Of a stretch of 64,000 nt of DNA, positions 40,897 to 57,047 are shown in pieces (the first letter of the stretch is position 1; each line of letters opens with the position of its first letter). A program made the translations under genes and the position numbers. Below the pieces are notes generated by a model that had not been told where the DNA came from, did not search any database, and saw only the letters and a program-made list of their open reading frames with translations. The DNA comes from Fischerella sp. JS2 (GTDB lineage: Bacteria; Cyanobacteriota; Cyanobacteriia; Cyanobacteriales; Nostocaceae), in assembly GCF_032393985.1 (NCBI RefSeq), contig NZ_CP135918.1, forward strand, positions 5,085,724-5,149,723, read 5' to 3'.

Positions 40897-43800
40897 TTAT
40901 CGGTCATTATTAACTGTTAACTGATGACTGTGTAAAGTTCGGATCGCTTCCACTAGTATTTCTGGAGTAACAGGTTTAGCAATATGCTGTTGAAAACCCG
41001 CAGCTAGTGCTTGTTTCTGATTCACTTCTCCCGCATAAGCACTCAGGGCGATCGCTATAATCTTATTTTCTGGTTCTGATTCCAACGCGCGGATCTGACG
41101 CATTAACATATAGCCATCTGTTTCTGGCATCCCAATGTCGCTAACTAGAATGTCTGGCTTGAATTGCGTCAGTATTTGTAATGCTTCCCTAGCAGATGCT
41201 GTTGCAGCTACTTCAGCACCTGCTTGTTCCAAGACAAAAGCGAGAAAATTACGGGAATCTACTTCATCATCAACCACCAAAACCCGGAGATTTGTTAGTG
41301 GTAAAGTGTCAGGAGTAGACGTGCAGGAGTGATTCGTCGCTGTTCCATCTTTGGGTCTAACACTTGCGGATTTGATTGGTAACCTAACAGTAAAAGTTGC
41401 TCCTTGTCCCTCTCCTGGACTTTCTGCTGCAACGGTTCCCCCATGCAATTCAACGAGGTGACGTACGATCGCCAGCCCTAACCCTAATCCCCCAAACATC
41501 CGGGTTGTGGTGCTATCTGCTTGCCGAAAATACTCAAACACATGGGGTAAAAAATCTGGAGAAATTCCTTTACCTGTATCTGTGATTTGAATTTGAGCAT
41601 ACTTTGTCATTTGTCCTTTATCATTTGTCCTTTGTTCTTTACCTTCTCCAGATGACGTAGACGCGCCAGCGGTGAGACAGCGCGGTCTTGGGGGTTTCCC
41701 CCATGAGCGACTACGAACCCGAAGGGCTTCCCGTAGGGTATGACTAGTGACCAATGACAAGCGAATTTCTACCTGTCCTCCTTGGGGCGTAAACTTGACA
41801 GCATTGGAGAGTAAATTCCAAATCAATTGCTGGAGGCGGGCTGAATCTCCTAAAACTGGGAATTTGGGATTGTTTGGTTGTTCCTCGGTTGGTATGGATG
41901 CTAAATTTTGCTGACCATTCTCCAATCCAAAATCTGAAATTGTAAATCGCAAATCGATGGACTTGGCTTGGGCTGCTAACTGCACGGTTTCAAGTGCCGA
42001 TTGAATCACCTCTGGCAGGTTAATAGGAGCCATATTGAGGCTAAGCTTACCTTGGAGAATGCGCGAGACATCTAAAAGATCCTCAATGAGTTGGGTTTGG
42101 AGTTTAGCGTTGCGCTCAATTGTTTCTAAGGCATAATCTGTTTTTGCCGCATCCAATTTTCCCGTGCGCAGCAATTTAGACCAACCCAAAATTGGATTGA
42201 GTGGTGTTCGCAACTCATGGGACAGCACCGCCAAGAATTCATCTTTGACCCGGTTGGCAGCTTCTGCCACACTTCTTGCTGTTCGTTCTGCTTCGTAGAG
42301 GCGAGTACGAGCGATCGCCTGGGCACATTGTTGGGCCAGCGATAGGATAAACACTTGTTGTTCCCCATCCAACTGTTGTGGCTCAATGAAACCAAAAGAC
42401 ATGCCTCCGACTGCCCGACCTTCAACTATCAGGGGAATGGAAATCCAAGCATCGAAGGGCTGCTGCTCATACTGTTCTCTGAGGTGCGGATAGTGGATTG
42501 CTCGTCTTTGTGATGATTCTGCCCAGATGGGCTGTCCGGTGCGTACGGCTTCTGCTAAAGGCACAGGCTCATTGAGGGAAAATCGCTGCCAAGGGTTGAT
42601 TTGCTCGGGTTCACAGCCCACGGTTCGGATAACTTCGAGTTCAGTGCCAGTCTCATTCACTAAGGCAATCAGGGCAAATTTCGCACCCAGAACCGCAATT
42701 CCTTGATCTGCAATCACATCTGCTACCTGGAGGGGGGTCAGAGATTCCGAAAAAGCAGCCGTCACAGACTGAAGGCGGGCAATGCGCTCGGCAGATTGCT
42801 CTGCGGCTTGTTGCGACTGCTGTGCTTCTTGGTAGAGGCGGGCATTATCAATAGCGATCGCAGCTCGATGGGCAATGTCTTCTGCCAAGTCTATATCTGC
42901 CTGGTGATAACGGCGATCAGATTCAGCTGTGACCAAGGAAATTGCTCCTAAAATCTGTCCGCGAGCAATTAACGGTGAAACAATGGCAGACTTTAAGCCC
43001 AGTTCGCGCAAGATGCGTAGATGTTCAGCGTCTTGAGCCACCATTACTAATGCAGCATCTGGAATTTCAGTTGCCATTTCGCTTTTTCCAGTTCGCAGCA
43101 CTTTCGGCACTCCTTCCATCTCGTCGATTCGTCTAGGATATTGCCGATGAATTTCCCAACCCAATGCCACTTTCGTTGGGTCACGGTGAGCCACTGCAAC
43201 CCGATGAATGAATTGATTGTCTTGCAGCAGGTCGATCGCGCACCAGTCCGCAAACAATGGCACTACCAAATTTGCCACAGTTGCCAGAGTACATTCATAA
43301 TCCAGTGAGGATGCCAGTACTGTGCTGACTTCTGCCAGAAATGCCGATCGCCGCTGGTCGGCTTCTGCTTTGATCCGGGCAATTTGCTCTTGAACTTGCT
43401 GCCGCATCAATTGGGCGTGTTCCGCTTCTGAGCGTTTGCGCTCGGTAATGTCTTTGTTAATACCAATAAAAAAGATGGGATTCCCGGTTTTGTCGTACAC
43501 GGGTTTTGCTGTTGTTTCAATTGGCACTAGCGATCCATCTTTTCGCACACAGGGAATTTCACCACAAAACTTTCCTGCTGTCTGAATAGACTGAATAATT
43601 TCAGCCGTCATTGTCGCTTTGATATCCAGGTGATGGAGAAAGTTAACGGGTTTACCGATCACCTCTGCGGCTGTATAGCCAAAGATTTGCTCGGCATTAC
43701 CCAGCCAGCGTTGAATCTTCCCTTCCAAATCGGTTAACAAAATGGCATCGGGCATTTGTTGCAAAGCAACATCTGATACCAGTAATTCGGCTTCGGCTTG

Positions 43801-44826
43801 TTTGCGTTCGGTGATGTCGTGCATCACAACGACTGCTCCTTGTTTTTTGCCCTGGCTATCAGCGATCGCCTGTCCACTAGCAAGTAGTGTCCTCGCCTTT
43901 CCCTGTTTGGGCGCAATCACCATTTCAACATTCTCGACTGTTTGTCCTTGTAACGCTCGAAATAGGGGGATATCGTTTTTGGACATCCGCGTTTTGCCAT
44001 CGGGCAAATACAAGTCATAGTATTCTGCCCACTGTTCGGGTGGCAGTGGTTGTTCGGGCAAGCCATGAAATTCCCGTGCTGCGCGATTAAATAAAGTCAA
44101 AATTCCCTCGGCGTTACAGGCTACGATTCCTGCCTGGACATGCTCAAGCAGCACTTTGAGTAACTCCTGTTCTTTTTGCAGGGCTGCTTGGGCTTGCTGC
44201 CGTTGTGCAATTTCTAAGCGGAGTAATTCGTTTCCTTGTGATAATTCAGCCGTCCGTTGTTCAACTAATTGCTCTAACTCTTGCTGGGCTTGTTGCTGTG
44301 CTGCTTCTGTTTGCTGCCGCTCTAATTGATCCATTACCATTGCGGCTAGATCCGCGAGGATGGCTTTTTGCTCTTCGGTTAAGGCATCACGGGGTTTTGT
44401 ATCTAACAAACAAAGACTTCCCAGGTTAAAGCCATCTTGGGTGAGCAATGGTGCGCCGGCATAGAACCGCAAACCCGGTTCATTTTGTACAAAGGGATTA
44501 CAGATAAGGCGACGATCTTGCTTGGTGTCGGGAATAACTAATACCTCGTTGGATAATAGCGTCAAGCTGCAAATAATTTCATCTCGTTGCACCTCGCGTA
44601 TCTCAAAGCCATAGGAAGATTTAAACCAGCCTCTCGATTCATCAATCAGCAAAACCAACGCGATCGGCACATCAAATAAACGTGCTGCCAAGGAGGTGAT
44701 ACGATCAAAGGCAACTTCTGGTGGGGTGTCGAGAATATTGTATCGCCGCAGTGCCTCTAAACGCTCTACCTCATTTGCAGGTAAAGGAGCAGTTGTTGCC
44801 ATCGGTTGAGGGGAAGATTCAGTCAT
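40897..44826 (-). CDS. Hybrid histidine kinase (GAF-PAS-PAS-GAF-GAF-HisKA-HATPase-REC) with repeat-derived insertion
   Basis: A 1309-residue protein. GAF lies at about 20-175, a Gln/Glu coiled coil to about 225, PAS at about 225-340 and 350-470, GAF at about 495-680 and 690-860. HisKA has LSHELRTPLNPILGWSKLL (phospho-His near 870). HATPase has the N box LIWNLLSNAVKFTP, G1 DTGKGIS and G2 GGLGLGLAIVRHLVEL. REC lies at about 1180-1300 with DILVSDIGMPE (phospho-Asp near 1225). A foreign stretch of about 55 residues (about 1024-1080), coded at 41592-41760, lies between the N box and G1. It may still be active, as all core boxes remain. Ligands of the sensor domains are unknown. Confidence 0.93.
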   Translation of the reverse strand: MTESSPQPMATTAPLPANEVERLEALRRYNILDTPPEVAFDRITSLAARLFDVPIALVLLIDESRGWFKSSYGFEIREVQRDEIICSLTLLSNEVLVIPDTKQDRRLICNPFVQNEPGLRFYAGAPLLTQDGFNLGSLCLLDTKPRDALTEEQKAILADLAAMVMDQLERQQTEAAQQQAQQELEQLVEQRTAELSQGNELLRLEIAQRQQAQAALQKEQELLKVLLEHVQAGIVACNAEGILTLFNRAAREFHGLPEQPLPPEQWAEYYDLYLPDGKTRMSKNDIPLFRALQGQTVENVEMVIAPKQGKARTLLASGQAIADSQGKKQGAVVVMHDITERKQAEAELLVSDVALQQMPDAILLTDLEGKIQRWLGNAEQIFGYTAAEVIGKPVNFLHHLDIKATMTAEIIQSIQTAGKFCGEIPCVRKDGSLVPIETTAKPVYDKTGNPIFFIGINKDITERKRSEAEHAQLMRQQVQEQIARIKAEADQRRSAFLAEVSTVLASSLDYECTLATVANLVVPLFADWCAIDLLQDNQFIHRVAVAHRDPTKVALGWEIHRQYPRRIDEMEGVPKVLRTGKSEMATEIPDAALVMVAQDAEHLRILRELGLKSAIVSPLIARGQILGAISLVTAESDRRYHQADIDLAEDIAHRAAIAIDNARLYQEAQQSQQAAEQSAERIARLQSVTAAFSESLTPLQVADVIADQGIAVLGAKFALIALVNETGTELEVIRTVGCEPEQINPWQRFSLNEPVPLAEAVRTGQPIWAESSQRRAIHYPHLREQYEQQPFDAWISIPLIVEGRAVGGMSFGFIEPQQLDGEQQVFILSLAQQCAQAIARTRLYEAERTARSVAEAANRVKDEFLAVLSHELRTPLNPILGWSKLLRTGKLDAAKTDYALETIERNAKLQTQLIEDLLDVSRILQGKLSLNMAPINLPEVIQSALETVQLAAQAKSIDLRFTISDFGLENGQQNLASIPTEEQPNNPKFPVLGDSARLQQLIWNLLSNAVKFTPQGGQVEIRLSLVTSHTLREALRVRSRSWGKPPRPRCLTAGASTSSGEGKEQRTNDKGQMTKYAQIQITDTGKGISPDFLPHVFEYFRQADSTTTRMFGGLGLGLAIVRHLVELHGGTVAAESPGEGQGATFTVRLPIKSASVRPKDGTATNHSCTSTPDTLPLTNLRVLVVDDEVDSRNFLAFVLEQAGAEVAATASAREALQILTQFKPDILVSDIGMPETDGYMLMRQIRALESEPENKIIAIALSAYAGEVNQKQALAAGFQQHIAKPVTPEILVEAIRTLHSHQLTVNNDR
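41644..41745. repeat. Intergenic-type repeat inserted in frame in the kinase gene
   Basis: Contains TAGACGCGCCAGCGGTGAG, GGGGGTTTCCCCC and GGGCTTCCCGTAGGGTA, i.e. the same TAGACGCG...CCCGTAGGGTA family found between genes at 12581, 36707 and 37045. Here it lies inside the coding frame of the kinase ATPase domain. Confidence 0.85.
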
Positions 44827-47351: not shown

Positions 47352-48812
47352 TCACCCTTGAATTGCCAGTGTCCCCATCATCCCCAAATCTTCATGGTCG
47401 AGAATATGGCAATGATAAACAGTTCTACCAGCGAAATTGCGGAAAGGAACGCGAATGCGGATTGTTTCACCTCTGGGTACTAAAACTGTATCTTTCCAAG
47501 CGGGATAAGGTTCTGGCTGACCATTGCGACTAATGATTTGAAAATGATTAACGTGGAGATGGAAGGGATGATCCATTACCCCTGTATTGACAATTTCCCA
47601 GTCTTCTACTGTGTTTAATTTGACTTGGGTATCAATGCGTTCATGCTGGTAGGACTGACCGTTAATTAGAAAGACCATACCCATACCAGGAGCCATACCA
47701 TGATTAAGTTCAAAGCGACGCACTTGCCTTGGTTCGGGTAAAGCTGGTATTTTCAATAGTTTTTTAGGTAAAGAAGCGGGTTTTATAGCCGAACCGTAAT
47801 TAATAGTTGCTAAAACTGTAGATGTGTCATCATTTCTGCCCATCATACCTCTTGTGCCCATCATACCCATTCCCATCGCGCCGCGATCGTAAGGTAGATT
47901 GAGCAAGCGATATTTTCCTGGTTTTTGATCTGCTTTAATCAGCACTTCTGCTCGTTGTCCTGGTGTTAGCAGCAATTCACTAATTTCTACAGGTTCGGTT
48001 AATGCCCCTCCTTCAGTCGCAATCAAGTAAAAAGGATGATTTTCCAGTGACAACCGATAGAAGCGGGAGGTGGAAGCATTGAGAATTCGCCATCTTACCA
48101 TTCCTTTTGCCGGAAATGAGAAAGAGGGGTTAGGATCACCGTTAATGGTAATTACATCTCCTTCACGTCCGGTCATAATTGACATATGTGCTGAAGACAT
48201 TAACCTTCCTTCACCATCAACAGCAAAATCTTGCAGCACCAAAAATTCTTCTTTGGCGGCTTTAATTTCGGGAATTTCATCCAATTCCCCCCGCACTATC
48301 AATAAACCAGCCAATCCCCCAAACAATTGTTCCGCCACAAAGCCGTGGCGATGGGGATGATACCAAAACGTCCCAGCACAATGGTTAGAAGGAATAGTAA
48401 ATTCGTAGTTTAAACTTTCTCCTGGCTCAATGCTTAAAAAGACATTATCAGCATTACCCGTAGGTGGAATGTGTAGTCCGTGGTAGTGGAGGTTAGTTGG
48501 TTGAGAAAGATTGTTAGTAAAATGAATGCGGACGGTATCTCCTGGTTTTGCTTCCAGGCGTGGTGCGGGTATTTGTCCGTTGTAAGTTAATAAATATGCT
48601 TGTTTGTCACCCAATTTTACAGCACGGTTACTAGCTTCGAGGTTAATTTCTAATAATCCATTATTACTTTTATGCAACTTAGGCAAGTCAATTGCTGGTT
48701 TTGCTGATAACTGAGAAGTACTAACTCTTTCCCATATCCAACTAGCAGCTACAGCCGTTCCAGCACCAGCCGCAGCCAGGGTGATAAACTGACGGCGATT
48801 TATGTTTTTCAT
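47352..48812 (-). CDS. Multicopper oxidase, CueO/CopA-like
   Basis: A 486-residue protein with a Tat signal (NRRQFITLAAAGAGTAVAASW). The type-1/2/3 copper ligands are NLHYHGLHIPP, WYHPHRHGFV, HPFHLHVNHFQI and YHCHILDHEDLGMM, the complete set of the family. A Met-rich insertion (GAMGMGMMGTRGMMGR, near residues 320-336) fits cuprous-ion binding as in CueO. It oxidises Cu(I) to Cu(II) in the periplasm. It lies between the lipoprotein and DUF411 genes in an operon-like minus-strand run. The gap to DUF411 is 52 bases. Confidence 0.95.
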   Translation of the reverse strand: MKNINRRQFITLAAAGAGTAVAASWIWERVSTSQLSAKPAIDLPKLHKSNNGLLEINLEASNRAVKLGDKQAYLLTYNGQIPAPRLEAKPGDTVRIHFTNNLSQPTNLHYHGLHIPPTGNADNVFLSIEPGESLNYEFTIPSNHCAGTFWYHPHRHGFVAEQLFGGLAGLLIVRGELDEIPEIKAAKEEFLVLQDFAVDGEGRLMSSAHMSIMTGREGDVITINGDPNPSFSFPAKGMVRWRILNASTSRFYRLSLENHPFYLIATEGGALTEPVEISELLLTPGQRAEVLIKADQKPGKYRLLNLPYDRGAMGMGMMGTRGMMGRNDDTSTVLATINYGSAIKPASLPKKLLKIPALPEPRQVRRFELNHGMAPGMGMVFLINGQSYQHERIDTQVKLNTVEDWEIVNTGVMDHPFHLHVNHFQIISRNGQPEPYPAWKDTVLVPRGETIRIRVPFRNFAGRTVYHCHILDHEDLGMMGTLAIQG

Positions 48813-48864: not shown

Positions 48865-49440
48865 TTAGTAATTTTGATACTCTTTAAAAACTTCTACTTC
48901 ACCTTTTTTATCAAACGCTAAAATTGCAAACGGCTGTTTTCTATTGCCTGATTCCATTCCTGGCGTTCCTAAAGGCATTCCCGGTACAGATAAACCTGCC
49001 AACTTGGGTTTTTGTTTGAGAAAACGTTTAATATCATCGGCGGGTATGTGTCCTTCCATTACATAACCGTCAATAATTGCTGTGTGACACGATGCTAAAT
49101 CTTGAGGCAAGTTGTACTTTTGCTTAATTGCCTCCATTCCATCAGTTTTAATATCTTCTTTGATTGTAAACCCGTGCTTTTGCATATGTTTAATCCACTC
49201 TCCACATCAACCACAAGACGGACTGCGATAAACTGTGATTTCTTGATTTCCTGAGTAAGGTTCTGTTTCTTTGTCCCAGATGCTTGTGGTGGAAATTAAT
49301 GGAGAATTGCTGACTAATGTTTGTGGATTATTGTCTAAATTAGCATTTCCTTTGCTTAACAGAGCTACTGTTGCATAAGTAGTAGCTACTACTCCAGTAG
49401 TAATAATGACTGATACTAAAGGGCGGGATATTTTATTCAT
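48865..49440 (-). pseudogene. DUF411 copper-binding protein interrupted by an in-frame TGA
   Basis: One frame runs from ATG 49438-49440 to 48865, broken only by TGA at 49207-49209. Residues 1-30 are a signal anchor. The DUF411 site SPSCG-[TGA]-CGEWIKH lies at the break, where family members read SPxCGCCGxW. A Cys codon has thus become TGA. The downstream half (GFTIKEDI, CHTAIIDGYVMEGHIPADDI) is intact and keeps the conserved Cys/His. There is no frameshift. DUF411 proteins bind copper in the periplasm and usually sit beside CopA/CueO oxidases, as here. Possible readings: nonsense mutation, sequence error, or a UGA-encoded selenocysteine. An ATG at 49183-49185 could restart translation. Confidence 0.85.
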
Positions 49441-49931: not shown

Positions 49932-52001
49932 ATGGCACATCGCAACCATAGAACACCTGTTGACTCTGTTACAGAACATCAGCAACATCACTACCCTAAA
50001 GAACATCAACCAGGACATTTGGAACACGGTGGACACGCTGGACATGGTAAACACGCTGGACACAGCCCGGAAATTTTCAAACGTCGCTTTTTTATCTGCC
50101 TGGTTCTGACTTTACCAATCTTATATTTTTCCACCCAATTACAAGAATGGTTGAATTACGAAGCGATCGCCTTTCCTGGTTCGGGGTGGATTAACCCGGT
50201 TTTAGCAATCATCATCTATTTCTATGGCGGTTGGGTATTTTTAAAAGGTGCTTGGAACGAACTGCACAGCAAAATCGGGATGATGACCTTGATTGCACTG
50301 GCAATCACAGTAGCATTTGTCTATAGCTTGGCAGTTTCTCTGGGTTTACGGGGGATGCCTTTTTATTGGGAATTAGCAACCCTAGTAGATATCATGTTGC
50401 TGGGACATTGGGTAGAAATGGCGTCAGTTCAAGGTGCTAGTCGGGCTTTGGAAAATTTAGCACAATTAGTACCTTCTCAAGCTCATCGCTTTACTAACGG
50501 TAAAGTTGAGGATGTGCCAGTTAACGACATTCAAGCAGAAGATATTATCTTAATTCGTCCGGGCGAACAGGTTCCCAATGATGGGATTGTCATTGAGGGA
50601 GACACCAATATTAATGAATCTTTTCTTACAGGTGAATCTCGTCCTGTTCCTAAACATGAAGGTGATGAAGTCGTAGCTGGTTCGGTTAACGGTGAAGGTT
50701 CGGTAAAAGTTAAAGTTACTCGTATTGGTGGTGACACGACAATTAATCAGATTATGCGCTTGGTAGAAGAGGCGCAGGGTTCAAGAAGTAGATATCAAGT
50801 TTTAGCAGACCGCACAGCTTACTGGTTAACTATCATTGCGATCGCTGCTGGTAGTCTCACTTTCTTTGTTTGGCTGTTTTTTAGCGATTTACTCTTTGCT
50901 GTCAACCGTACTGTTACCGTATTAGTTATCACTTGTCCCCACGCCCTTGGTTTAGCGATTCCTTTGGTAATTGCCAACTCTACTGGTTTAGCTGCTAAAA
51001 ACGGCATTTTGGTAAGAAACCGAGATGCTTTAGAACGGGCAAAAGATATTAAAAATATGGCGTTCGATAAAACTGGAACTCTGACAGAAGGACGCTTTGC
51101 AGTTCAAAGAGTTGTTAGCGACTCTATTGCAGAAGAACAAGCCTTAGCAATAGCCGCAGCTTTGGAAACTTCTTCCGAACACCCGTTAGCTAAAGCAGTG
51201 GTGGAAGCCGCCGAACGCCGCCAACTGCATTTACCCCAAATGAGCGATTTTAAGACAGTAACGGGTCGGGGTGTGGAGGGGAAAGTTAACGGTGAAACTT
51301 ACCAAATCGGTCGTCCGGAATGGGTGGAAGAACAAAATCTGAATTTACCATCATCTCTACGTCAAGGACTAAATACAGCAGACGAACGCGGAGAAAGTGC
51401 GGTAGTTTTAATGACTTCTAAAAGTGCTGTTGCCGTAATTTCAATGGCTGACCAAGTGCGAGAACGGGCGCGAGAAGCGGTAAAGAAGTTAAAGGAAAAA
51501 AATATTCAAGTAATCATGATTACTGGAGATGCGGAAGCTGTAGCCCGGACTGTTGCCGAGGATTTAGGTATTGATCGTTATTATGCCCGCGTTTTGCCAG
51601 AAGACAAGGTTAATATTATCAAACAATTGAAACAAGAAGGTGCAACAGCTTTTGTTGGCGATGGAATTAACGATGCAGCTGCACTTTTAGAAGCTAATAT
51701 TGGGATTGCGATCGGTGCAGGAACTAATGTGGCAATTGAATCTGCGGACTTAGTGTTGATTGAAGATGATCCTTTAGATGCGGTTAAAGCCCTCAATCTA
51801 GCACAAAAAACTTACAGCAAAATGATTCAAAATTTGGCATGGGCAACAGGTTACAACGTAATTGCCATCCCCCTGGCTGCTGGTGTGCTTTATACCTGGG
51901 GATTTTTGCTTTCGCCAGCAGTGGGGGCGTTGTTAATGAGTTTATCAACTGTGATTGTGGCAATTAACGCTGTGATGTTGCGACGAGCGAAGTTGGCTTA
52001 G
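49932..52001 (+). CDS. copB: Copper-translocating P-type ATPase, CopB-like (CPH motif)
   Basis: A 689-residue P1B-type ATPase. A His-rich N-terminus (GHLEHGGHAGHGKHAGHS, about residues 28-46) replaces the usual CxxC domains. Membrane helices start near 50. TGES lies in the actuator domain (FLTGESRPVP), CPH is the transmembrane metal motif (VITCPHALGLAIP), DKTGTLTEG is the phosphorylation site, and GDGINDAAAL the hinge. CPH plus a His-rich N-terminus is the IB-3 subgroup, linked to Cu(II)/Ag(I) transport. It lies on the plus strand opposite the copper-oxidase operon. Confidence 0.95.
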   Translation: MAHRNHRTPVDSVTEHQQHHYPKEHQPGHLEHGGHAGHGKHAGHSPEIFKRRFFICLVLTLPILYFSTQLQEWLNYEAIAFPGSGWINPVLAIIIYFYGGWVFLKGAWNELHSKIGMMTLIALAITVAFVYSLAVSLGLRGMPFYWELATLVDIMLLGHWVEMASVQGASRALENLAQLVPSQAHRFTNGKVEDVPVNDIQAEDIILIRPGEQVPNDGIVIEGDTNINESFLTGESRPVPKHEGDEVVAGSVNGEGSVKVKVTRIGGDTTINQIMRLVEEAQGSRSRYQVLADRTAYWLTIIAIAAGSLTFFVWLFFSDLLFAVNRTVTVLVITCPHALGLAIPLVIANSTGLAAKNGILVRNRDALERAKDIKNMAFDKTGTLTEGRFAVQRVVSDSIAEEQALAIAAALETSSEHPLAKAVVEAAERRQLHLPQMSDFKTVTGRGVEGKVNGETYQIGRPEWVEEQNLNLPSSLRQGLNTADERGESAVVLMTSKSAVAVISMADQVRERAREAVKKLKEKNIQVIMITGDAEAVARTVAEDLGIDRYYARVLPEDKVNIIKQLKQEGATAFVGDGINDAAALLEANIGIAIGAGTNVAIESADLVLIEDDPLDAVKALNLAQKTYSKMIQNLAWATGYNVIAIPLAAGVLYTWGFLLSPAVGALLMSLSTVIVAINAVMLRRAKLA

Positions 52002-53153: not shown

Positions 53154-53972
53154 ATGAGTTATGATTACGACCTTTTTGTGATTGGTGCAGGGCCAGGAGG
53201 TGTTGCAGCTGCCGAACGTGCTGCTAAATATGGGGCGCGAGTAGCGATCGCCGAACGAGATCAAGTGGGTGGAACCTGTGTAGTGCATGGTTGCATACCC
53301 GAAAAATTGATGACCTATGCAGCGAGTTTCTCCAAGTTTTTTCGCAATGCTGACGAATATGGCTGGGGTAAGGTACAAACCAACTTTGACTGGCAACAAT
53401 TTATGGCAGCCAGAAATCATGATATCAATCATCTCTCACAGGTACACACCGAGCATCTGCGAGAAGCTGGAGCAAAACTATTCACAGAAAATGCCCGATT
53501 ATTAGATGCTCATACTATAGACCTTGGCGATCGCCAATACACTGCTGAAAAAATATTGTTGGCGGTGGGTGGCAAAGCCACCAAACCAGGTATTCCCGGA
53601 ATTGAATATGCAATTACTACCCGCGAATTACTCACACTTAAGCAGCAACCAGATCATTTAGCAATTGTGGGCAGTAACCATATTGCCGTCAAGCTAGCGG
53701 GGATTATGAACGGACTAATATCGAAGGTGACTTTAGTTGTAGCCGAAGATAACATTCTACCCGTCAAAGATGAAGACTTGCGGAATATGATTCAAGCAGA
53801 AATTAGCGATTTAGGAGTGAGAATCTGTCCCAACAGTCAGGTTGACAAAATAGCTAAGGCAGACAAATGTTTAAATTTAACTTTGTCCTGTGACGATCGC
53901 CCTGTAGAAGTCGAAAGTATCGTGTTACCACTCCAATACTGCTCCAACTCCCTTTTGTTGTTCAACACTTGA
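53154..53972 (+). pseudogene. Truncated glutathione-reductase-like flavoprotein
   Basis: A 272-residue frame. FAD motif VIGAGPGGVAAAERAA, redox-active disulfide GGTCVVHGCIPEKLM (Cys near 43 and 48), and an NAD-binding segment LAIVGSNHIAVKLAG with a GxN variant. Gor/lipoamide-type reductases are about 450-480 residues, so the entire dimerisation domain and part of the NAD domain are missing. After VESIVLPL the last residues (QYCSNSLLLFNT) are read through the opposite-strand end of czcA, showing a rearrangement junction near 53925. The product could not form the usual active dimer. Confidence 0.82.
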
Positions 53973-56900
53973 CATTTGTTTTGGCATTAACAACTTACCG
54001 AACTTAGCGTATAAAGCAGGTAACACTATTAATGTTAAGGCTGTCGAGGTAAATAATCCCCCCAGTACCACCACCGCTAGAGGTTGCAAAATTTCCTTAC
54101 CCGCACCCGTACCAATGACTAGAGGAACCATTCCCAAAGCGGAGGTCAAAGCTGTCATTAAAATAGCTACTAAGCGTTCCATCGATCCCTGAAAAATTAC
54201 TTCCTTTAAAGTCATTCCCTGTGCCAGCTTATTGTTGTAATTATCTACCAGTAGCAAGCCGTTGCGTGTTGCTACGCCAAAAAGGGTAATAAAGCCTACC
54301 AAGGAAGCTACAGAAATTATCCCACCTCCCAAAGCAATGGAAAAGATTCCGCCAACCACTGCCAGAGGTAAATTAATCATAATCATCAGCATCGCCGCGA
54401 CAGATTTAACAGCAAAGTACATTAATATACCAATAACAACAATTGCCAGTCCTCCAAATACTAGTAAATTCTGAGTAGCTCGTTGTTCTGATTCAAACTG
54501 ACCGCCGTATTGAATAAAGTAACCTGTGGGTAGTTGTACTGAATTTTTGACTTGAGTTTGAATTTCATCTATCACAGAACCTAAATCTCGTCCTGATAGG
54601 TTTGCAGACACAACAATCAGGCGAGAAACATTTTCGCGGTTAATTGTATTGGGGCCAGTTCCATAATCTATACTGGCGACTTGCGCCAGAGGAATTTTTT
54701 GACCTGTGGGAGTATCTACTAGTAAATTACGAATAATATCTAAATTATTACGAGCATCTTCTTTTAACCAAACCACCAAATCAAATAGTTGTTGGTCTTT
54801 AAGAACCTGAGATACTACTCTTCCATTGAAAGCAGTTTCTACTATCTCACTCAGATTACCTACAGTTAAGCCATAACGAGCTGCTGCTTCACGGTTAAAT
54901 TGAATTTGTAATTGTTTAATCGGGACTTGGGGTTCGAGTTGTAAGTCTACAAGTCCAGGAATGTTACTTACTGCTGCTTGAACTTGGGAACCTAAACGGC
55001 GTAGTTCTTCCAAATCAGGGCCGAAAATTTTGATAGCGATCGCACTTCTTACCCCAGATAATACTTCATCCATGCGGTGAGAAATAAACCCGCCGATATT
55101 GGGCGCAGCACCGGGTATCTTCGCAAATTCGGCTCGCAGTTTTTCAATACTTCCTTTTCTATCTTTCAATCCCTCTGCACTCAGTTCTACATCCAAATGT
55201 CCCAAGTTAACCCCACCTGCATCTGCATCCCCAGGCGCACGTCCGGATCTTAACTGCACTGATTTAAATCGTTTATCATTTTTGAGAGCATCCTGCATCG
55301 CAAATCCAACTTGATTAGTTGCTTCTAGAGAACTTCCTGGATACAGAAGCACTGCGTTGACTAAAGATGGTTCTTGAAACTCCGGCAAAAATACTCGTCC
55401 CAAACTTGGCAGAATAACTAAAGATGCCACTAAAGATGCTGCTGCCACTGCTAAGATAATTGTCGGGAACCGCATCGAAAAATTCAGAATCTGTCGATAA
55501 AGTCGCTGTGAGAAAGCACTTACCCAAGTATCATCTGCTGGTAATCGTCTGTTCGCCAACAAAATCGCACACAAAGCCGGGGAAAGGGTCATTGCTACTA
55601 AAGTAGAAGCAAAAATTGACACTAAGTAAGCAATCCCCATCGGTGCAAATATCCGACCTTCCACGCCTGTCAGTGAAAAAATGGGTGCGAAGACGACGGC
55701 AATAATTACGGTAGAGAAAATTACACTAACTCTGACTTCTACAGAGGTATCATACACAACTTTCAAAGGATGCACAGGAGTTCCCGCTAGTTGATTCTTT
55801 CGCAAACCCCGGTAGGCATTTTCCATATCGACAATAGAATCATCCACTACCGAACCAATGGCGACAGCTAAACCTCCTAATGTCATAGTATTGATACCTT
55901 GACCAAATAAGGCCAAAATCATCATCCCAATCAAAACTGATAAAGGAATGGCACTCAGGGTAATCACTGCGGTACGCCAGTTCATTAAAAATATTAGCAG
56001 GATAATCGAAACGATGATGATACCATCACGTAGAGAACTGGTCACATTTGCGATCGCGGCATCGATAAAATTATTCTGGCGGAAGGTTTCGATAACTTTG
56101 ACATCTTTGGGTAAGCCAGCTTTGACTTCCTCCATTGCTCTTTCGATCGCTCTGGTGACGGTCGGGGTATCATATTGGGGTTGCTTGTTAACCATCACTG
56201 CGATCGCTCTTTGACCGTTTAAACTGCCATCTCCACGCTTGAGGGCTGCACCAATTCGCACATCTGCCACATCTTTGAGTAAAATTGGCGTACCATTGCG
56301 AGCTGTAATTGCCGAATTTCCCAATTGTTCAATTGAATCTATGCGTCCGACTCCGCGAATAACTATTTCTTGGTCGGGATTAATTAAAAAGCCACCTGCA
56401 GCATTGACATTTGCACCTCTTGCTGCTGCTGTGACTTCTTCTAAAGTGACATTAAAAGCCTTAAGCTTGGCTGGATCGACTAAAACCTGATATTGACGAA
56501 CATCACCACCATAGGCAATCACCTGAGAAACACCCGGTACAGCTAGCAGTCGATTGGTAATATCTCGATCAACCAAACGCCGCACTTCCATCATCGGAGT
56601 TGTTTCGGTAGTTAAGGCATATTGCAGAACTGTACCAATAGGTGAAGAAATTGGAGAAATTTGTGGATTTTCCACACCTTCTGGTAATTTCTGCACAGTT
56701 TGTTGCAATCGTTCTGTGACTAATTGCCGTGCTTGATAAACATTAGTACCCCATTTAAAAATTACTTTTACAACAGAAATACCAACAGCCGAGGAAGAAC
56801 GCACAGTTTCTACTCCCGGCGTACCATTGACTGCGCTTTCGATTGGTAAAGTAATGAGAGATTCGACTTCTTCGGGAGCGAGTCCTGGGGTTTCGGTTTG

Positions 56901-57047
56901 AATTTCTACTTGGGGTGGGGCAAAATCAGGAAAAACATCTAGAGGCATCTGGGTGAGGTTATACACACCCAAAAAAGTGACAACAATTGCCCCCAGCACA
57001 ACTATCCAGCGTTGGACAATCGACCACTTGAGAATCGCGTTTAGCAT
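53925..57047 (-). CDS. czcA: Heavy-metal efflux RND pump, CzcA-like
   Basis: A 1040-residue inner-membrane RND pump. N-terminal LKWSIVQRWIVVLGAIVVTFLG, then two large periplasmic loops. HME signature near residues 400-420: AIGSVVDDSIVDMENAYRGL, with the proton-relay acidic residues of the fourth helix. Twelve membrane helices overall. Its end (QMSSVEQQKGVGAVLEW) overlaps the flavoprotein remnant tail by 48 bases, so the 3' few residues may be altered. It is co-transcribed with the adaptor gene 31 bases upstream. The metal (Cu/Ag or Co/Zn/Cd) cannot be told from sequence alone; the neighbourhood favours copper. Confidence 0.95.
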   Translation of the reverse strand: MLNAILKWSIVQRWIVVLGAIVVTFLGVYNLTQMPLDVFPDFAPPQVEIQTETPGLAPEEVESLITLPIESAVNGTPGVETVRSSSAVGISVVKVIFKWGTNVYQARQLVTERLQQTVQKLPEGVENPQISPISSPIGTVLQYALTTETTPMMEVRRLVDRDITNRLLAVPGVSQVIAYGGDVRQYQVLVDPAKLKAFNVTLEEVTAAARGANVNAAGGFLINPDQEIVIRGVGRIDSIEQLGNSAITARNGTPILLKDVADVRIGAALKRGDGSLNGQRAIAVMVNKQPQYDTPTVTRAIERAMEEVKAGLPKDVKVIETFRQNNFIDAAIANVTSSLRDGIIIVSIILLIFLMNWRTAVITLSAIPLSVLIGMMILALFGQGINTMTLGGLAVAIGSVVDDSIVDMENAYRGLRKNQLAGTPVHPLKVVYDTSVEVRVSVIFSTVIIAVVFAPIFSLTGVEGRIFAPMGIAYLVSIFASTLVAMTLSPALCAILLANRRLPADDTWVSAFSQRLYRQILNFSMRFPTIILAVAAASLVASLVILPSLGRVFLPEFQEPSLVNAVLLYPGSSLEATNQVGFAMQDALKNDKRFKSVQLRSGRAPGDADAGGVNLGHLDVELSAEGLKDRKGSIEKLRAEFAKIPGAAPNIGGFISHRMDEVLSGVRSAIAIKIFGPDLEELRRLGSQVQAAVSNIPGLVDLQLEPQVPIKQLQIQFNREAAARYGLTVGNLSEIVETAFNGRVVSQVLKDQQLFDLVVWLKEDARNNLDIIRNLLVDTPTGQKIPLAQVASIDYGTGPNTINRENVSRLIVVSANLSGRDLGSVIDEIQTQVKNSVQLPTGYFIQYGGQFESEQRATQNLLVFGGLAIVVIGILMYFAVKSVAAMLMIMINLPLAVVGGIFSIALGGGIISVASLVGFITLFGVATRNGLLLVDNYNNKLAQGMTLKEVIFQGSMERLVAILMTALTSALGMVPLVIGTGAGKEILQPLAVVVLGGLFTSTALTLIVLPALYAKFGKLLMPKQMSSVEQQKGVGAVLEW

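What the first reader, a model, noticed from the sequence alone, without database searches (positions are those of the whole stretch)
49207..49209. In-frame TGA exactly at a conserved Cys of a DUF411 copper protein
The frame is uninterrupted on both sides from 49440 to 48865. The TGA replaces one Cys of the SPxCGCCGxW metal site (reading SPSCG-TGA-CGEW) in a copper locus, one base away from TGC/TGT. A plain nonsense change, a sequence error and a selenocysteine codon all give this pattern. No obvious SECIS-like stem follows within 30 bases, which favours nonsense or error, but a candidate metal-site selenoprotein deserves testing. Otherwise the locus has lost a periplasmic copper chaperone, leaving only a short start peptide and a possible restart at 49185.
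Basis: partly seen in the sequence, partly recalled or inferred. Interest (0 to 1): 0.7.

Follow-up and report, generated by a model that had tools for sequence, protein, structure and literature searches.

The report
Broken copper-protein gene, not a selenoprotein
A cyanobacterial gene for a periplasmic copper-binding protein carries a stop codon exactly where a metal-binding cysteine should be, and a second fault at its start, in a genome where key parts of the selenocysteine machinery were not found, so it is most likely an ordinary, recently broken gene.

Summary
In detail: an in-frame TGA (49209-49207, minus strand) is codon 78 of a 191-codon DUF411/CopG-type frame, at the middle Cys of the CxCC copper site. 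All 81 distinct homologues that cover the site read TGC or TGT. The selenocysteine reading fails. No SelA, no SelB over cut-off, no tRNA-Sec over cut-off and no UCA-anticodon tRNA were found, and no SECIS-like fold follows the TGA. SelD is present, but so is MnmH, so tRNA 2-selenouridine explains it. RF2 is present. The sequence after the TGA still shows strong purifying selection, so the loss is very recent. Four neighbouring genes shared with the nearest relative are intact, which argues mildly against scattered sequencing error. Verdict: a recent pseudogene of a known family, of low interest. Resequencing would separate mutation from error.

The parts
48865..49440 (-). DUF411/CopG-like frame (191 codons), broken at codon 78
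   Evidence: PF04214; 6wis, E 4.4e-34
49207..49209 (-). In-frame TGA at the middle Cys of CxCC
   Evidence: 81 of 81 distinct covering homologues have a Cys codon
49455..49466 (-). Start-region lesion: the conserved upstream ATG (49463-49461) is followed by an A run one base shorter than in five close relatives; it is out of frame and opens an 8-9 residue peptide ending at a TGA (49439-49437) that overlaps ATG 49440
49183..49185 (-). In-frame ATG after the stop (possible restart; product would lack the N-terminal hydrophobic segment and CxCC)
47352..48812 (-). Multicopper oxidase directly downstream, intact
   Evidence: PF07731, PF07732, PF00394; 93% identical over 485 aa to relative G114, no stop
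49932..52001 (+). Divergent P-type ATPase
   Evidence: PF00122, PF00702

Best explanation
This is a recently inactivated (pseudogenised) copy of the genome's only DUF411/CopG periplasmic copper-protein gene. One change turned the middle Cys codon of the CxCC copper site into UGA, read as stop. A one-base loss in the start region put the conserved initiator ATG out of frame. Translation, if it begins at the internal ATG 49440 (perhaps by coupling through the ATGA overlap), ends after 77 residues, before the metal site is complete. The TGA, the start-region difference and the Cys conservation are shown. The loss of protein, its recency, and the coupling are inferred.
For: TGA in place of a Cys that is constant in 81 of 81 distinct covering homologues. 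No SelA match; no SelB or tRNA-Sec match over cut-off. No UCA anticodon among 73 tRNA matches, and no tRNA at the 30 (of 31) matches to a UCA-tRNA pattern that had loci. RF2 present. No SECIS-like fold. Start-region lesion. Four neighbouring genes, 2257 aa in the relative, align in the window without stops. No second DUF411 in the genome, and both same-genus genomes give no match, so the gene is dispensable in this group.
Against: Apart from the TGA, the coding sequence looks functional: no residue from 61 to 191 departs from a column at least 90% conserved in 69 distinct cyanobacterial homologues. After the stop, dN is 0.015 against dS 0.228 versus G114, with 1 nonsynonymous and 5 synonymous changes on the window's branch (P(<=1 of 6) = 0.0014 under neutrality). 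This requires very recent loss, or an error, or some read-through. The internal ATG 49440 could bypass the start lesion.
Confidence: 0.8

Rival explanations
1. Sequencing or assembly error at the TGA, and possibly also a homopolymer error at the start; the real gene is intact.
For: The rest of the gene shows no decay. A one-base change in an A run is a typical error type (recalled).
Against: Two faults lie within about 250 bp, while four adjacent genes (2257 aa in the relative) have none. If faults were scattered evenly over these roughly 7.4 kb, the second would fall in this gene in only about 8% of cases (my arithmetic; the first fault was the reason for looking here).
Confidence: 0.15
2. 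Partial function is kept by low-level near-cognate misreading of UGA (for example by tRNA-Cys or tRNA-Trp), giving small amounts of full-length protein.
For: Strong purifying selection downstream of the TGA; one tRNA-Cys(GCA) and two tRNA-Trp(CCA) genes were seen, which is unremarkable.
Against: No dedicated decoder found. The next base is U, recalled as a strong termination context. RF2 is present. Recency explains the selection pattern equally well.
Confidence: 0.04
3. UGA encodes selenocysteine at the copper site.
For: UGA exactly at a redox/metal Cys with Cys homologues; SelD present.
Against: No SelA match (the control rings in E. coli and M. jannaschii). Best SelB-like hit 191.6 bits, under the 242.25 cut-off, covering only model positions 1-264 of 581. 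No tRNA-Sec over 47 bits; the eight hits below it are found by ARAGORN as five Ser, two Tyr and one Gly tRNA (150 of 376 first-look candidates were scored). No SECIS-like fold. SelD is accounted for by MnmH. Surveys report that cyanobacteria lack the trait (PMC1794560, PMC9312934, passages seen).
Confidence: 0.01

Closest known systems
CopG of Pseudomonas aeruginosa (DUF411, PDB 6wis/6wje) and CutG of Rhodobacter capsulatus
   Same: Same family by sequence (6wis, E 4.4e-34, aligned over residues 68-189); CxCC motif in the homologues; gene next to a multicopper oxidase, as in cutFOG.
   Different: Here the middle Cys of CxCC is a stop codon and the start region is damaged.
Bacterial selenoproteins with a UGA codon at a redox Cys
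   Same: UGA at a conserved Cys position with Cys-containing homologues.
   Different: No SelA, and no SelB or tRNA-Sec over cut-off, and no SECIS-like element found.
Ordinary nonsense pseudogenes of bacteria (recalled as a kind, not searched)
   Same: Premature stop, start-region lesion, intact homologues, gene absent in close relatives.
   Different: Very young: no relaxation of selection is visible yet.

Membership tests
DUF411/CopG | Pfam PF04214 match over cut-off | tested here: met
   94.8 bits against 27; the matched stretch (residues 115-162) lies after the TGA
DUF411/CopG | Complete CxCC copper-binding motif | tested here: not met
   Middle Cys codon is TGA in the window; Cys in 81 of 81 distinct covering homologues
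DUF411/CopG | Copper binding or copper resistance function | not testable with these tools
   needs protein work
Bacterial selenoprotein | SelA in the genome | tested here: not met
   no match
Bacterial selenoprotein | SelB in the genome | tested here: not met
   10 matches, none over cut-off, best 191.6 against 242.25 bits
Bacterial selenoprotein | tRNA-Sec (selC) | tested here: not met
   8 matches, none over 47 bits (150 of 376 candidates scored); ARAGORN reads them as Ser, Tyr or Gly
Bacterial selenoprotein | SelD | tested here: met
   302.5 bits against 125, but MnmH is present too (370.3 against 219.75)
Bacterial selenoprotein | SECIS hairpin just after UGA | tested here: not met
   z between -0.97 and +0.73 in seven stretches of 40-150 nt; z -0.45; no Rfam match in the window at gathering scores
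Pseudogene | Premature stop that removes a conserved functional part | tested here: met
Pseudogene | Further disabling lesion | tested here: inconclusive
   conserved start out of frame, but the internal ATG 49440 may bypass it
Pseudogene | Relaxed selection | tested here: not met
   post-stop dN/dS about 0.07 against G114; fits recent loss only

The most novel reading that the evidence does not exclude
The UGA is decoded at a useful level by an unrecognised route (near-cognate tRNA-Cys, or an unknown Cys- or Sec-inserting tRNA), giving a recoded copper-site protein in a cyanobacterium.
Probability: 0.02. Interest if true: 0.8.

Novelty: new member of a known kind. Interest (0 to 1): 0.1.

Why it matters
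It closes a selenoprotein lead. It also shows why a UGA at a conserved Cys must be judged with the genome's whole Sec machinery: SelD alone misleads here, since MnmH explains it. The only lasting point is a young loss of a copper-handling gene beside otherwise intact copper genes. If the rare alternative (decoded UGA) were true, it would be a new recoding case in a phylum reported to lack selenocysteine.

Tried and rejected
Selenocysteine: rejected after searches for SelA, SelB, tRNA-Sec, SelD and MnmH, and folding. The archaeal/eukaryotic route (SepSecS) was not searched.

General UGA reassignment: RF2 is present, and 8 of 34 mechanical frames of at least 150 aa in the window end in TGA, so UGA works as a stop.

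UCA-anticodon suppressor tRNA: 73 Rfam tRNA matches (458 first-look candidates, of which 150 were scored), all lying in stretches given to ARAGORN, which found all but four and read no UCA anticodon. For those four I read the anticodon region by eye: GUC, UGU and UGU, and one unresolved but with no UCA in it. The Rfam list is not complete: a tRNA-Ser at 5773423 is but not among the 73. A UCA pattern gave 31 matches against 57 for the reversed control, and the 30 that had loci show no tRNA at the match; one was not examined.

Parallel cases: four homologue rows with an internal stop looked like parallels. In three the stop is the ordinary C-terminal one, and in the fourth the Cys site is intact and no stop occurs up to residue 188. 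No other DUF411 in the genome. Rfam on the whole window: no match at gathering scores. The plasmid search gave 10 records, none covering 80% of the query.

Papers: a search for 'selenoprotein' with 'DUF411' gave 0 papers; searches were seen as listings. Passages only of PMC1794560, PMC5029168, PMC7558416 and PMC9312934; passages and one section of PMC8456105. The CopG structure paper itself was not held.

Full report
What is there. The minus-strand frame 49440..48865 has 191 codons with one internal TGA at 49209-49207. Read through, it is a DUF411 protein (PF04214) related to the solved protein 6wis (E 4.4e-34), which two papers name as CopG, one of them as that of P. aeruginosa (passages, legend). 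The passages say that CopG binds a tetranuclear copper cluster through a CxCC motif and two methionines. The TGA sits on the middle Cys of that motif. The gene lies 52 bases upstream of an intact multicopper oxidase on the same strand, and a P-type ATPase runs the other way. R. capsulatus cutFOG also pairs a multicopper oxidase with such a gene; there the CxCC cysteines were not needed for oxidase activity.

Is the Cys constant? I took 98 homologous loci (17, 57, 24), which collapse to 83 distinct sequences. Two (L113, L126) do not reach the site. The other 81 carry TGC (41) or TGT (40). In the family search 109 of 217 genomes have a match, 115 places in all. Of the 114 places other than the window's, 113 cover residue 78. 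110 of the 114 report no internal stop; the other four do not have it at this site. Among everything examined, the TGA is private to this genome. The two other genomes of the genus have no match.

Can the genome read UGA as selenocysteine? SelA: no match, while the control rings in E. coli and M. jannaschii. SelB: ten matches, none over cut-off, the best over the first 264 of 581 positions only; by length and position it looks like EF-Tu (inference). tRNA-Sec: eight matches, none over cut-off (150 of 376 candidates scored); ARAGORN reads them as five Ser, two Tyr and one Gly. SelD is present, but so is MnmH/YbbB, the pair that makes up the selenouridine trait (passages). Surveys found that trait, and no selenocysteine decoding, in cyanobacteria. 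Folds of 40-150 nt from the TGA are no more stable than shuffles (likewise). RF2 is present. No UCA-anticodon tRNA was found, within the limits told under tried and rejected. With 99.99% completeness stated for this single-contig genome, the selenoprotein reading is not supported.

A second fault. Near relatives have an ATG eight codons upstream of the position of 49440. In some of them (L003, L075, L182, L183) the internal ATG does not exist, so the upstream one must be the start there. In the window the matching ATG (49463) is followed by an A run one base shorter than in L179, L004, L071, L180 and L181, and is out of frame. It opens a peptide of 8-9 residues that stops at a TGA overlapping ATG 49440. 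The missing base could also be placed just before the ATG; in either case no ATG, GTG or TTG lies in frame between the preceding stop and 49440. This lesion may be bypassed from ATG 49440, perhaps by coupling through the ATGA overlap (inference), so it weakens the gene but need not kill it.

How old is the damage? Against the closest relative (G114, 90% identical protein), the part after the TGA has dN 0.015 and dS 0.228. On the window's own branch it shows 1 nonsynonymous and 5 synonymous changes, against 3 and 7 on G114's branch, with 1 synonymous change unassigned. Before the TGA the numbers are 5 and 4 against 9 and 6, with 1 nonsynonymous unassigned. Under neutrality about 80% of changes after the stop would be nonsynonymous, and 1 or fewer of 6 has probability 0.0014. 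Counts are small, and branches were assigned by the majority of five relatives. No residue from 61 to 191, the TGA apart, departs from a column at least 90% conserved in 69 distinct cyanobacterial homologues. The loss is thus very recent, or the record is wrong, or some product is still made.

Mutation or error? I compared eight proteins of the G114 locus with the window; five match. Four of these, of 170, 486, 1040 and 561 aa in G114, align as single open frames without stops; the fifth is the DUF411 gene with its one stop. Two faults in one gene and none in the others favours real decay, but mildly: about an 8% chance for the second fault to fall in this gene if scattered (my arithmetic, and the first fault was the reason for looking). 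I cannot see reads, so error keeps 0.15.

Verdict. A young pseudogene of a known copper-protein family.

Noticed in passing
window 53154-53972 (+): A pyridine nucleotide-disulphide oxidoreductase frame of 272 aa ends inside the 3' end of the convergent RND-type pump gene (53925-57047; label recalled). The nearest paralogue in the genome sits in a 461-aa frame (45% identity over residues 1-251), so this copy looks truncated. Apart from short matches (157 and 45 bases), the window segment from the P-type ATPase to this frame is not found at the matching place in relative G114.
   Followed up: partly
L128 (G000:C1:5769500-5774000): A dense tRNA array. Three members (L128 242-341, 2005-2100, 3402-3497) match the tRNA model only with extra bases in the T-arm region (29, 27 and 25 letters where the model has 5, 6 and 4), and one tRNA has a four-base anticodon reading (tcct).
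   Followed up: partly
L145 97-168 (-), G000:C1:3691626-3691690: An isolated tRNA-like gene with a CUA anticodon (ARAGORN: tRNA-Pyl), which would read UAG. Its acceptor stem looks poorly paired by eye, so it may be a remnant.
   Followed up: partly
L066 (G000:C1:1497654-1498583): SelD lies in an open frame of 812 codons, far longer than the 311-position model, suggesting a fusion.
   Followed up: no
window 40897-44826 (-): A 1309-aa frame that looks like a hybrid histidine kinase (label recalled) holds a low-complexity insert (around ...TAGASTSSGEGKEQRTNDKGQMTK...) in what looks like its ATPase region.
   Followed up: no
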